Shown: piece by piece, positions 24,356 to 28,803 of the stretch
How positions within the stretch are numbered: the first letter of the stretch is position 1
Layout: every line of letters begins with the position of its first letter
Source: an uncultured bacterium
GTDB taxonomy: Bacteria > Patescibacteriota > Saccharimonadia > CAILAD01 > BJGX01
Direction of reading: 5' to 3'
Length of the DNA: 32,573 nucleotides
Assembly (NCBI GenBank): GCA_903832035.1
Contig: CAILAD010000022.1
Span: 1 to 32,573 of the forward strand
Notes under the pieces: model-generated
What the model saw: only the letters and a program-made list of their open reading frames with translations
Database searches by the model: none
Told to the model about the DNA's origin: nothing
Made by a program: the position numbers and the translations under genes

Positions 24356-25342
24356 ATGAAGAAATCTAAAAAGAAAATAACTATTATACGTTCCGAACAC
24401 CCGGAGCTTAGATCAATGGGACCCAAGTACACAAAGCTTTTACTTGAAGCTCTATCTACAGGTTACGAAAATGTAACTGTGCTCATGATCAACAACCAAA
24501 GTGATATTTCCAAGCTAAAAGATCTAAAGCCAAATTTAGTTATAGTTGGGATGAAGAATTTACCTCTACCTAAAGATAAATTTGATGATAGTATTACGCC
24601 TGTCGCACTACTAGAAAAATTAAAAATCAATTTTGCAGGCTCAAAGGATGCGTCAAGATCAATTGGCAGGCAAAAGGAATTGGCAAAAGAAGTCATGAAA
24701 AAAGCCAACATACCTACGGCCGGATACTTCATGGCTAAACCTGATCAATACCGCACAGGCAACAATCTACCATTAAAGTTTCCACTATTTATAAAACCAC
24801 CGCACCGCGGACAAGGCCTAGGAATAGATGCGGACTCGGTTGCGAGAAATTTCAAAGAGTATGAATCAAAAGTTAAGTCTATACATAAACTATTCAATAG
24901 TAAATCACTTGTAGAGCAGTACTTAAATGGTCGAGAATTTACAGTGGCTATAATGGAGCATGAGAATGGTCAGGCTCTCAATACTATGCCCGTGGAATTA
25001 ATTGCAGCTGAAAATGATAGAGGTGACAGGATTCTAGGATCGCGTATAAAAAATGAGGATAATGAATCTGTCCTTCTAATAGCTGAGCCACATATTAAAA
25101 AAGTAGTTATCGCACTAGCAGAATCAGTGTTTAGACAGCTAGGTGCAAGAGATTACGCTCGAGTCGATATACGCATGAGTGATGCAGGTACAGCTTATTT
25201 TATAGAGGCAAATTTATCACCAGGTCTAGGTCATGGCTATTTCACAAGGGCGTTTAGCATTAACACTGGCGTAGGCTACGACAAGCTTATATGCAGGATA
25301 TGCGATATATGCATGAATAAGAATCGTAAATTATTAAACTGA
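24356..25342 (+). CDS. ATP-grasp ligase, D-alanine-D-alanine ligase-like (divergent)
   Basis: 'FPLFIKPPHRGQGLGI', 'LVEQYLNGREFTVAIM', 'YFIEANLSPGLGHGYFTRAFSINTGVGYDKLI'. Confidence 0.7.
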   Translation: MKKSKKKITIIRSEHPELRSMGPKYTKLLLEALSTGYENVTVLMINNQSDISKLKDLKPNLVIVGMKNLPLPKDKFDDSITPVALLEKLKINFAGSKDASRSIGRQKELAKEVMKKANIPTAGYFMAKPDQYRTGNNLPLKFPLFIKPPHRGQGLGIDADSVARNFKEYESKVKSIHKLFNSKSLVEQYLNGREFTVAIMEHENGQALNTMPVELIAAENDRGDRILGSRIKNEDNESVLLIAEPHIKKVVIALAESVFRQLGARDYARVDIRMSDAGTAYFIEANLSPGLGHGYFTRAFSINTGVGYDKLICRICDICMNKNRKLLN

Positions 25343-25392
25343 TCTAAGAAAAGTTTTTAGTTTAGCGAAGGGCTTAATTTTTAAATACGTTA
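25302..25392. repeat. 91-bp direct repeat, copy 1 (3' end of ddl-like gene + 3' fragment of rdgB)
   Basis: Aligns base by base to 28226-28316 with 3 mismatches (offset 2924 bp). Confidence 0.97.
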
Positions 25393-25411: not shown

Positions 25412-25929
25412 ATGGGTCTCTCTGAAGTGCATCGCACGCTTGTTGAGAAGTATGATTTTAAAGTAACTAAGCAACAATACTTTATTGACTATGAATGTAT
25501 GGCCATAGGGCTGTATACCAGAATAGCCAAGCCCATACCGGGCATAAGAATTTATAAAATTTTTGTATGCGCGTGGGATAAAGTTGGCTATAGCATCTTC
25601 ACCTAAGGCGGCTTGGATAAAAAATCACTCTAAATATATAGGTCATCTAAATATTTCAAGCTTATTACGTCCGCTTACGACAATTACGTGGCGAATGGAA
25701 AGCCTAGCCCAGAGTATATATAAAAGCTCTCGAGCAAATACAGTCATCAATAGGTAACACGCTGGGAATAGAGGATTCGACTAACGGCACCCGTGCTGCA
25801 AAGAGCGCTGGTTTAATATGCATCGGTTTGAATGTTGACGGCTTTAATCTACAGGATCTGTCGATGGCAGACACTATAGTTAGAACCTATGATGATTTAC
25901 TTGGTATTTTTATTAAGATGCTTAATTAG
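25412..25929 (+). pseudogene. 5'-truncated, multiply frameshifted HAD hydrolase (beta-phosphoglucomutase-like)
   Basis: Successive frames give HRTLVEKYDFKVTKQQYFIDYECMAIGLYTRIAKPIPGI / YARGIKLAIASSPKAAWIKNHSKYIGH / KYFKLITSAYDNYVANGKPSPEYI / IGNTLGIEDSTNGTRAAKSAGLICIGLNVDGFNLQDLSMADTIVRTYDDLLG; catalytic DxDG N-terminus missing. Confidence 0.88.
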
Positions 25930-26763
25930 AGCATCTGTCTTTTCAAGAAATTTATTGATTAAATCTTGTTCAATATTATCGGCATGAATACGCTCAACCG
26001 CCCAATAAATCATGTACAGCGAGATGACCTCCTCGGCATATTCTCTGTCTATTCCTGTAATTTGAAGGTACTGCTCCAACAATAACCTATATATTTGTTG
26101 GCCGTAGCCTTTCGTGATTTCTTTAAAACGGAAATAGGCGATGTCCATTAATGGGTCACCAATGAAGGCATCACCGTAATCAATAATGCCTTCGTAATGC
26201 TTATCTTTGACGAAAATTGCACTCAAAGCAAAATCTCCATGTACAAGCATACCTATTTCTAGCTTAATTTTTGGCGCAGTGCTTTGCCAATAGGTTGACA
26301 AGTTTTTCTTTTGATCACCAGAAAGCAGGCTAGATGAGCGTAGCTTATCGAGCGCCACATCTAAAAAAACTCCCCAACTATCGTAAATGCCACGAAACTG
26401 GTCGTTGGTAAGCTTAGCCGGGCCAAAGCCACTGAATAGTATCCTACGGTCGAGTGCGAGGTCTTTCGCTATGTCACGAAATATCTCTACCTCCTCGTAC
26501 AAGTCAATTTGGTCATCAATTGTCGCGCCGCTAAAAGCGCTCATCACAAGTTCATCATCACTTACTGATATTAGGATTGGTACATGTGCACCGAGCTTAG
26601 CGAGAGCCTGGTACACGAAGCCTTCGAACCGATATTGAGTCTTGCCATTGGTGCGACGATTCTTGGTAACTGTAGGGAACTGGCTACTAGTATTGAGATA
26701 GACGATACTCTCTGTGCCAAGCCCAACAACAGACGATTTAGGTTGACTCTTACCCACAGGCAA
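25897..26763 (-). CDS. Aminoglycoside phosphotransferase/choline kinase-like (APH) protein
   Basis: 'GMLVHGDFALSAIFV' catalytic loop-like, 'GIIDYGDAFIGDPLMDIAYFRF'. Start is TTG 26763 or GTG 26757, overlapping the upstream 57-aa ORF. Confidence 0.8.
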   Translation of the reverse strand: MPVGKSQPKSSVVGLGTESIVYLNTSSQFPTVTKNRRTNGKTQYRFEGFVYQALAKLGAHVPILISVSDDELVMSAFSGATIDDQIDLYEEVEIFRDIAKDLALDRRILFSGFGPAKLTNDQFRGIYDSWGVFLDVALDKLRSSSLLSGDQKKNLSTYWQSTAPKIKLEIGMLVHGDFALSAIFVKDKHYEGIIDYGDAFIGDPLMDIAYFRFKEITKGYGQQIYRLLLEQYLQITGIDREYAEEVISLYMIYWAVERIHADNIEQDLINKFLEKTDALIKHLNKNTK

Positions 26764-26923
26764 TAATATCCTTGCCCCCTAAGCTCGTAACTGTTTCCTG
26801 CTCTTCTTCGGGAAACTTATCGAGCAATTCTTGCATTACTTGAGCTTCAAATTCATCTTTACGCTCATCCAGCTTTTCTTGCTCACCGTATGGACCTTCC
26901 GGATTGTTAGCGTAGGCAATCAT
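26750..26923 (-). CDS. 57-aa acidic small protein (MIAYANNPEGPYGEQEKLDERKDEFEAQVMQELLDKFPEEEQETVTSLGGKDIIACG)
   Basis: Start overlaps the stop of the 364-aa gene as ATGA (26923-26920); 3' end overlaps the APH-like start by ~14 nt. Not in supplied ORF track. Confidence 0.65.
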   Translation of the reverse strand: MIAYANNPEGPYGEQEKLDERKDEFEAQVMQELLDKFPEEEQETVTSLGGKDIIACG

Positions 26924-28014
26924 ACTGTCTGACCAAAGTAATTGTCTAATGCTGGTTTTAAGGCAACAACGTGCGAACCGCCATAAACTACAAAGGGCTT
27001 TTTGCCTTGTTTGGTCGCGTCGGTAATAATATCAAACAAGTGGCGGTCTCGGAACTCGATATTCATTTTTGCTACTTCGTTTAGTCGGCTACCACCAGAT
27101 GGCCCCGTAGCCTCTACTAGCTGAGTACCGCTGGCCCCGGGTAGAGTCAACGCTCCATCCGCGCCAACTTCAAATTGGGGTAAACCCAGCTCCCGCAACA
27201 CCGGATTAAATTTCTCCATCGCAAATTTAGTTCCATCAGCTGCCATTTGGGCCAAAAGTGCGTCACGTAATTCTGGTTGTTGACTGATTTTGATTTTTTC
27301 TTCTTCGCTGTACTCACGAAAACCTGGAAGCCCGCAGCGAGCTAGCTGAGAATATATGTCGCCACCAGGGTCTATCGTTCGGCCAGGCTCCTTTACCAAG
27401 CTTGACCCAATACCTCGCAGGGTAGTAAACAGTGTCGCTTCCTCAATACTAACACCGCGACGCGTTAAGTCTTCAAGCTCTTCCTTTGGGGTAGGGTCTC
27501 CAGATGTGCGCTCTATTCCAGCGCCATCTGCTAAAAACATCGTTAAGCCACTGTCAGCGCGGTCCAAAATGGCGCGGGTTCGGTCTGTAAAGCTACCATC
27601 GCCACCCTCATAAACTACAAACCGTTCTTCCGGTGGGGTGGCATCGATATACTTATCAAACTCAACCTCGGTGTCGGTATGCGACTTAGCCTCGGGATTG
27701 TAATCATGTCCGCTAAGGACCTCGCCAGTCGCTTCGTTTAGCCTTACTTGGGCAATGATTGTAGCTTGCGGATAATGCTCGACTGCAATCTGGCCGGTGG
27801 CGGCACGCTCGGCATTGGCCTCCTCGTAAGCTTTATCGTAGCCTTTGTACTCCCGCCAAGCATCTTCTTCGCGGGGAGCTTCAGGGCTCTCGGTTTCTGT
27901 CTCGCTCGCATCAGTATTGCCAGTATTCACCTTGTCTTTTATCGCCAAGAGTTCTTCCCTAAGGGCTGCACCGGCCGACTGCTTATCACTTTCTTCATGT
28001 GGCTCTTTATCCAT
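26920..28014 (-). CDS. 364-aa protein with C-terminal TraB/GumN-like signature
   Basis: 'MNIEFRDRHLFDIITDATKQGKKPFVVYGGSHVVALKPALDNYFG' resembles the TraB/PrgY/GumN C-terminal GxxH segment; highly charged N-terminus; visibly GC-richer than neighbours. Family call tentative. Confidence 0.45.
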   Translation of the reverse strand: MDKEPHEESDKQSAGAALREELLAIKDKVNTGNTDASETETESPEAPREEDAWREYKGYDKAYEEANAERAATGQIAVEHYPQATIIAQVRLNEATGEVLSGHDYNPEAKSHTDTEVEFDKYIDATPPEERFVVYEGGDGSFTDRTRAILDRADSGLTMFLADGAGIERTSGDPTPKEELEDLTRRGVSIEEATLFTTLRGIGSSLVKEPGRTIDPGGDIYSQLARCGLPGFREYSEEEKIKISQQPELRDALLAQMAADGTKFAMEKFNPVLRELGLPQFEVGADGALTLPGASGTQLVEATGPSGGSRLNEVAKMNIEFRDRHLFDIITDATKQGKKPFVVYGGSHVVALKPALDNYFGQTV

Positions 28015-28225
28015 GGTCTTATAATACCAAAAAAGAGCCCTTCCAGGCTATTCCCTGTTCCTTGCTCGCTAAACAACTCAAGGCCAAGCAAACTGTCGTC
28101 GGTCGTCGTTGGCAGCCTTACCAATCACCCCACCTGTCTTGCTATTCGGTATTGGGATGACTTGCGTGCTCGCTACAGATACATCGACATCGTTGGTGCC
28201 CGAAGTCTCTAGACCATTCGTCCCG

Positions 28226-28316
28226 GCGATATATACATGAATAAGAACCGTAAATTATTAAACTGATCTAAGAAAAGTTTTTAGTTTAGCGAAAGGCTTA
28301 ATTTTTAAATACGTTA
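28226..28316. repeat. 91-bp direct repeat, copy 2 (ddl-like 3' fragment + intact rdgB 3' end)
   Basis: See copy 1 at 25302-25392; three substitutions (g/a, t/c, g/a). Confidence 0.97.
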
Positions 28317-28803
28317 TTTTGTCATCAGTCTCGTTAAGCTCAGCCCTCGTAACGGAATAGCCCTCGGGGATGAATATTTTATCCCAGCCATAACCACCCT
28401 CTCCTTTGGGGTGCTTTGCAATTACTCCACCCATCTGACCCTGAAAAAACTTCATATCAATTCCATTATAATATCCAAAGACACACTTAGCCGTGGCATT
28501 CCTACTTAAACCGTCTAAGGTACGGCAAATTGTCTCAAAGGGCACTTCCTCTACAAAAAATTTTATAAATGGACCAGGAAGGCGTCCCATAGCTTCGAAT
28601 TCTAATGCTACGTCTTCTACGATGACTGGGGATTTTACGACATCGTAAGCTTGGACGACCTTGTGTTTTACTATTTCCATAAGATCAAGTGATTGGATTT
28701 CGTCCAAATTGACTTTTTGATGTTGGACTTTAAAACCTAACTACTGAGCTAGGTAATCTGCCTTGCTTTGATTGCCAGTAATGAAAGTTATATCTTTATT
28801 CAT
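28258..28803 (-). CDS. rdgB: RdgB/HAM1-type XTP/dITP pyrophosphatase with in-frame TAG at codon 21 (28741-28743)
   Basis: MNKDITFITGNQSKADYLAQ*LGFKVQHQKVNLDEIQSLDLMEIVKHKVVQAYDVVKSPVIVEDVALEF...GGYGWDKIFIP; the TGNxxK motif lies upstream of the amber codon. Confidence 0.85.

What the first reader, a model, noticed from the sequence alone, without database searches (positions are those of the whole stretch)
25897..28014. Overlapping three-gene cargo operon: TraB/GumN-like protein, acidic 57-aa protein, APH-like kinase
Inside the insertion, 28014-26920, 26923-26750 and 26763-25897 are all on the minus strand and overlap start-to-stop (ATGA; ~14 nt), indicating translational coupling. The small middle protein is highly acidic and missing from the ORF track. 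A kinase-fold enzyme, a small acidic protein and a hydrolase-like partner on a GC-shifted, repeat-bounded island could be an undescribed accessory module (defence, toxin-antitoxin-like, or resistance/modification). The functional role is inference.
Basis: partly seen in the sequence, partly recalled or inferred. Interest (0 to 1): 0.72.

Follow-up and report, generated by a model that had tools for sequence, protein, structure and literature searches.

The report
Patchwork insertion with long target duplication
Three overlapping genes on a small foreign DNA island of a Saccharibacteria genome are probably a patchwork rather than a three-part system, but the island is one of several insertions in this lineage that copied 60-200 bases of their target and so left both neighbouring genes whole.

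Summary
The overlapping genes are real: 28014-26920, 26923-26750 (ATGA overlap) and 26763-25897 (14-nt overlap), on a GC-raised 2.9-kb island between 91-bp direct repeats. They do not form a recurring module: of 393 class genomes, 11 have the first gene, 7 a kinase match, only this one both. Four related genera keep the first gene between uvrB and uvrA. The kinase's close relative ends a sugar/cyclitol-type cluster whose HAD gene survives here as a decayed copy. The 57-aa ORF is probably the stump of a HExxH-protease gene that follows the first gene in the same-genus genome.

More notable is the island's edge. In G012 and G004 the same gene is also bounded by 84- and 61-nt direct repeats; G009 gives the empty site for G012, showing a copied target in which each copy decayed in its unused half. 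Further repeat-bounded inserts lie elsewhere in this genome. The copies span gene boundaries, so neighbouring genes stay whole. No transposase or integrase is seen.

The first protein has the TIKI/TraB residue pattern but no significant match; the kinase lacks the canonical metal-binding Asn. No defence match was found. Interest lies in the insertion pattern, not in the trio.

The parts
25302..25392 (.). left copy of the 91-bp direct repeat: 3' end of the ATP-grasp gene (stop 25342) plus a duplicate of the ham1 3' end
25412..25923 (+). decayed HAD-hydrolase gene (frameshifts, stops), N-terminus missing at the island edge
   Evidence: tblastn with the HAD of L037, two pieces, E 7e-20; frames
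25897..26763 (-). APH-fold kinase, 288 aa, TTG start; catalytic-loop Asn replaced (HGDFALSA)
   Evidence: Pfam APH E 2e-10; 40% identical to the G205 protein over its length
26750..26923 (-). 57-aa acidic ORF, probably the 5' stump of a zincin-like protease gene
   Evidence: coding-like GC by codon position
26920..28014 (-). TIKI/TraB-like protein, 364 aa
   Evidence: relatives in 10 other class genomes; invariant H103, E108, E136, R322, H348
28080..28220 (-). C-terminal remnant of an unidentified gene
   Evidence: open frame ending in a stop, cut at the repeat; no relative among fetched loci
28226..28316 (.). right copy of the 91-bp direct repeat: ham1 3' end plus a duplicate of the ATP-grasp 3' end

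Best explanation
The region is a horizontally acquired, partly decayed patchwork insertion, not a three-gene system. One piece carries a TIKI/TraB-like hydrolase gene that in relatives belongs between uvrB and uvrA, followed by the 5' stump of a zincin-type protease gene (the 57-aa ORF). It is joined near 26750-26763 to a second piece from a sugar/cyclitol-type cluster: an APH-fold small-molecule kinase and a HAD phosphatase gene that has since decayed. The insert entered the junction of the convergent ATP-grasp and ham1 genes and copied 91 bp of it, so that both genes kept their 3' ends. The same kind of insertion, with 60 to about 210 bp of copied target, carries the same gene in G012 and G004 and other cargo elsewhere in this genome. 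The likeliest mechanism is repair of a staggered break: overhangs of 60 or more bases are filled in and a captured fragment is joined between them; in a streamlined genome only insertions that keep both neighbours whole survive. Overlapping start and stop codons reflect dense packing and would couple translation, but do not show a shared function. Shown: overlaps, repeats, GC shift, separate home neighbourhoods, HAD remnant, empty site for G012. Inferred: stump origin of the 57-aa ORF, break-repair mechanism, enzyme activities.
For: Repeats and GC shift. First gene between uvrB and uvrA in G001, G006, G008, G010. First gene and kinase together only here among 393 genomes. Kinase relative at the end of HAD - FeADH - GT - GT - unknown - IMPase - APH in G205; window HAD remnant matches that HAD. 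57-aa ORF: score 55 against the N-terminal part of the HEVGH protein that follows the first gene in same-genus G001 and 55 against its G004 relative, shuffling p 3e-4 or lower, above all 865 segments of other proteins. Target duplications: G012 84 nt and G004 61 nt around the same gene, G001 99 nt beside it; G009 without the gene aligns with the outer flank of one G012 copy and the inner flank of the other; further cases in this genome at L091 (60 nt, 82%) and L095 (177/217).
Against: The 57-aa similarity is short; BLASTP reports nothing and the profile score is 5.9 bits. All three genes share raised GC3, so they may have been neighbours in one donor for some time. No empty site or donor was found for the window island itself. 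The G001 repeat is exact and 99 nt long, which equals a common assembler word size, so that case could be an assembly artefact. Single-crossover integration of a circle carrying the same target would leave a similar footprint.
Confidence: 0.66

Rival explanations
1. A functional accessory operon: hydrolase and kinase act together on a metabolite or glycan, and the 57-aa acidic protein regulates one of them.
For: Tight overlaps with an AAGGA before the kinase start; all three frames intact beside decayed HAD and ham1 genes; similar GC3.
Against: No co-occurrence in other class genomes; separate home neighbourhoods; catalytic-loop Asn of the kinase replaced; 57-aa ORF resembles a protease N-terminus.
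Confidence: 0.14
2. A defence or toxin-antitoxin module with the 57-aa protein as antitoxin.
For: Small acidic protein next to an enzyme gene on a foreign island; in G004 the first gene is followed by an EcoO109I-like restriction gene.
Against: No PADLOC match; no relatives in the phage, viral or plasmid searches made; no conserved partner for the small ORF.
Confidence: 0.05
3. The island is a site-specific element (or its remnant) and the repeats are its attachment sites, or it entered by single-crossover integration of a circle carrying the target sequence.
For: Long direct repeats at gene 3' ends are typical of attachment sites (general knowledge).
Against: No integrase, tRNA or Rfam element; targets differ completely between genomes and the copied length varies from about 52 to 210 nt, which a fixed attachment site would not give; a circle would have to carry each target beforehand.
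Confidence: 0.15

Closest known systems
TIKI / TraB / PrgY / GumN superfamily of hydrolases (PF01963 and relatives)
   Same: Invariant H103, E136, R322, H348 in the order and similar spacing of H41, E67, R228, H252 in YbaP and relatives and of the 2His/2Glu plus basic residue set described for TIKI enzymes (PMC6254334).
   Different: No PF01963 match above cut-off, profile comparison E 0.055 with probability 1%, no PDB fold match; a long insertion before the first His.
APH phosphotransferase family (PF01636)
   Same: Significant match; HGD catalytic and IDYGD metal loops; alignment to APH(2'')-type structures.
   Different: Asn of HGDxxxxN replaced by Ala in the window protein and in its close relative; home context is a sugar/cyclitol-type cluster, not a resistance cassette.
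Transposon and integrative-element insertions with target duplication
   Same: Foreign segment between two copies of the target sequence.
   Different: Copied target is about 52 to 210 nt and variable, far longer than the few to about fourteen bases usual for transposons (general knowledge); no recombinase gene seen.
Genomic islands of Patescibacteria
   Same: Small horizontally acquired segment; exchange among Patescibacteria is common (PMC12455944).
   Different: That survey does not, in the passages read, describe insertions with long target duplications.

Membership tests
TIKI/TraB superfamily | significant sequence or profile match | tested here: not met
   PF01963 best E 0.009 to 0.09, below cut-off, in relatives only; hhalign E 0.055; PF01963 finds nothing in 99 relatives
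TIKI/TraB superfamily | 2His/2Glu set plus a conserved basic residue, in order | tested here: met
   H103, E108, E136, R322, H348 invariant in 10 sequences; E108 as second Glu is my assignment; compare
TIKI/TraB superfamily | TIKI fold | tested here: inconclusive
   model pLDDT 82.6, no PDB match at E<=0.001; one uncharacterised viral match, E 2e-6
APH phosphotransferase | profile match above cut-off | tested here: met
   41.2 bits against cut-off 23.2
APH phosphotransferase | HxDxxxxN catalytic loop | tested here: not met
   HGDFALSAIF: Asp present, Asn replaced
aminoglycoside resistance enzyme | reaches a resistance-family cut-off | tested here: not met
   best 36 bits against 205
known anti-phage defence system | match to a defence protein model | tested here: not met
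   no PADLOC match up to E 0.1
toxin-antitoxin pair | toxicity neutralised by the small partner | not testable with these tools
   needs expression
site-specific integrative element | integrase gene and a fixed attachment site | tested here: not met
   no integrase ORF or tRNA; unrelated targets with variable duplication length
insertion with target duplication | empty site holding a single copy | tested here: met
   met for the G012 insertion with G009 as empty site; not available for the window island

The most novel reading that the evidence does not exclude
Saccharibacteria of this order take up foreign gene cassettes by a recombinase-free process that copies 60-200 bp of a gene boundary, leaving both neighbours intact, and the TIKI/TraB-like gene and proteins with a similar acidic N-terminal leader (LxxELxxI) are favoured cargo, perhaps as effectors toward the host.
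Probability: 0.15. Interest if true: 0.7.

Novelty: new variant of a known kind. Interest (0 to 1): 0.42.

Why it matters
Overlapping genes on an island can be a recombination patchwork, so overlap alone should not be read as a functional operon. If the long target duplications hold up across more genomes, they would show how ultra-small bacteria with almost no spare intergenic DNA can still take up genes, a question that becomes directly testable by looking for empty sites in sister strains. The TIKI-like gene tied to uvrB and uvrA is an unnamed family that merits study on its own.

Tried and rejected
Scans of named genomes found only relatives already known. Viral, phage and plasmid searches were negative, as was a viral-contig scan for the repeat core. 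The kinase-like look of the G015 extension could not be tested: no Pfam or PHROGs match, no convincing relative, model pLDDT 39. Similarity of the 57-aa ORF to a G090 protein was set aside as weaker and without shared context. Promoter and terminator scans did not exceed shuffles; no Rfam hit or tRNA. Two repeat pairs were discarded as other things: L102 in G012 (reads like duplicated tRNA sequence) and L109 in G004 (reads like a dispersed intergenic repeat); L037 is a pair of similar coding genes. Literature searches found no description of long target duplications in Patescibacteria.

Full report
Observation. The three ORFs, their strand, coordinates and overlaps are as described. They lie between 91-bp direct repeats at 25302-25392 and 28226-28316 with three mismatches; outside them the sequence differs at once. 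The left copy holds the 3' end of the ATP-grasp gene (24356-25342), the right copy that of ham1 (28258-28707, minus). Each copy carries the joined 3' ends of both genes, so both stayed whole at that end. The repeat occurs nowhere else in this 632-kb, 96%-complete assembly. GC and GC3 are raised in all three genes.

First gene. Relatives at 32-42% identity occur in the same family and order (Saccharibacteria by record titles, one named UBA4664) and in two more distant genomes with good scores. In G001, G006, G008 and G010 the gene overlaps or abuts the end of uvrB and precedes uvrA, in G001 with two small genes between. No true UvrB was found in the window genome. H103, E108, E136, R322 and H348 are invariant in ten sequences, matching in order and spacing the invariant residues of YbaP and relatives and the set described for TIKI enzymes (PMC6254334). 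Yet Pfam scores stay below cut-off, profile comparison gives E 0.055, and the model (pLDDT 82.6) has no PDB match. TIKI-like is a motivated but unproved label.

Kinase. It matches Pfam APH, aligns with APH(2'')-type structures and falls far below resistance cut-offs. Its catalytic loop reads HGDFALSAIF, without the canonical Asn. The only close relative in 393 genomes is in G205, of another family, as last gene of a cluster that begins with a HAD hydrolase and holds an iron-alcohol-dehydrogenase-like gene, two glycosyltransferases, an unknown gene and an inositol-monophosphatase-like gene. That HAD matches the window next to the kinase in broken frames (E 7e-20). Kinase and HAD gene thus share an origin, and the HAD copy has decayed.

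57-aa ORF. It has coding-like composition but no convincing direct relative. In same-genus G001 the gene directly after the first gene encodes a 256-aa protein with HEVGH; relatives exist in G004, G017 and G033. The 57-aa sequence aligns with the N-terminal part of the G001 and G004 proteins and ends at a CG conserved in both. Shuffling gives p 3e-4 or lower and none of 865 segments of other proteins reaches either score; BLASTP alone sees nothing. Place and sequence together make a truncated protease gene the likeliest reading.

No module. Of 393 class genomes 11 have the first gene, 7 a kinase match, one both. No defence match.

The insertion pattern. Around the same gene, G012 has 84-nt repeats at 81% identity and G004 61-nt repeats at 84%; beside it G001 has an exact 99-nt repeat around a 76-aa gene. 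G009, of the same genus as G012 and without the gene, is the empty site: its yaaA-like/DUF5684 junction matches the outer flank of one G012 copy and the inner flank of the other. The copy next to the yaaA-like gene is conserved in the yaaA half, the copy next to DUF5684 in the DUF5684 half, as expected if each copy decayed where it is not needed. The duplications cover the end of one gene and the start or end of the next: ATP-grasp and ham1 here, yaaA-like and DUF5684 in G012, the protease gene and uvrA in G001. In 242 kb of loci at hand only the window, G012 and G001 pairs and one pair of similar genes reach 55 nt at 78%. In a further 535 kb the window genome shows two more, L091 (60 nt, insert a 426-aa gene) and L095 (177 of 217 positions, insert a truncated epimerase gene and an rmlC-like gene, copied target the start of a VanW gene), and G004 one at L118. 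So the process is not confined to the TIKI-like gene. Variable length and unrelated targets speak against a fixed attachment site; no recombinase was seen. Break repair with fill-in of long overhangs and capture of foreign DNA is the simplest mechanism, but it is inferred. Exchange among Patescibacteria is documented (PMC12455944).

A possible leader. The N-terminal profile of the TIKI-like family has as its best other matches, among 812 ORFs, proteins with an acidic, probably disordered start and an LxxELxxI-type motif: L091 426 aa, L091 551 aa, the G001 protease, L108 203 aa (E 0.1 to 0.5). A pattern test gives 5 proteins against 0.26 for shuffled N-termini, but three are family members and the pattern was drawn from the same data, so this is only a lead.

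Limits. One genome per species, no metagenome scans, draft assemblies; the 99-nt exact repeat in G001 may be an assembly artefact.

Noticed in passing
28803-28741, minus strand: ham1 (XTP/dITP diphosphatase) carries an in-frame TAG at codon 21 (MNKDITFITGNQSKADYLAQ*LGFK), so it is probably a pseudogene or restarts downstream.
   Followed up: partly
whole assembly G000: No true uvrB was found although the assembly is 96% complete; only weak matches.
   Followed up: partly
L091:7954-9652 (G000 contig 13): A second repeat-bounded insert in the same genome: 426-aa repetitive protein gene between 60-nt copies that include the start of an M16-peptidase gene.
   Followed up: partly
L095:11-1483 (G000 contig 17): A third: truncated epimerase gene and rmlC-like gene between copies of about 210 nt that include the start of a VanW-like gene.
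   Followed up: partly
L019:4252-4846: Exact 99-nt repeat around a 76-aa gene before uvrA in G001; copied target includes the first eight codons of uvrA. Length equals a common assembler word size.
   Followed up: partly
L091, L019, L108, window 28014: Unrelated proteins share an acidic, probably disordered N-terminus with an LxxELxxI-type motif; possible common leader.
   Followed up: partly
L018:6302-8311: G015 protein of 669 aa fuses the TIKI-like domain to a C-terminal extension with a pattern (VLKVLK ... GDNVLW ... ILIVDTG) that recalls a kinase fold; not testable here.
   Followed up: partly
L020:7135-9203: In G004 the TIKI-like gene is followed by an EcoO109I-like restriction enzyme gene.
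   Followed up: no
L037:2907-9320: Seven-gene cluster in G205 (HAD, FeADH-like, glycosyltransferases, IMPase, APH-like kinase) that looks like an undescribed sugar or cyclitol pathway.
   Followed up: partly
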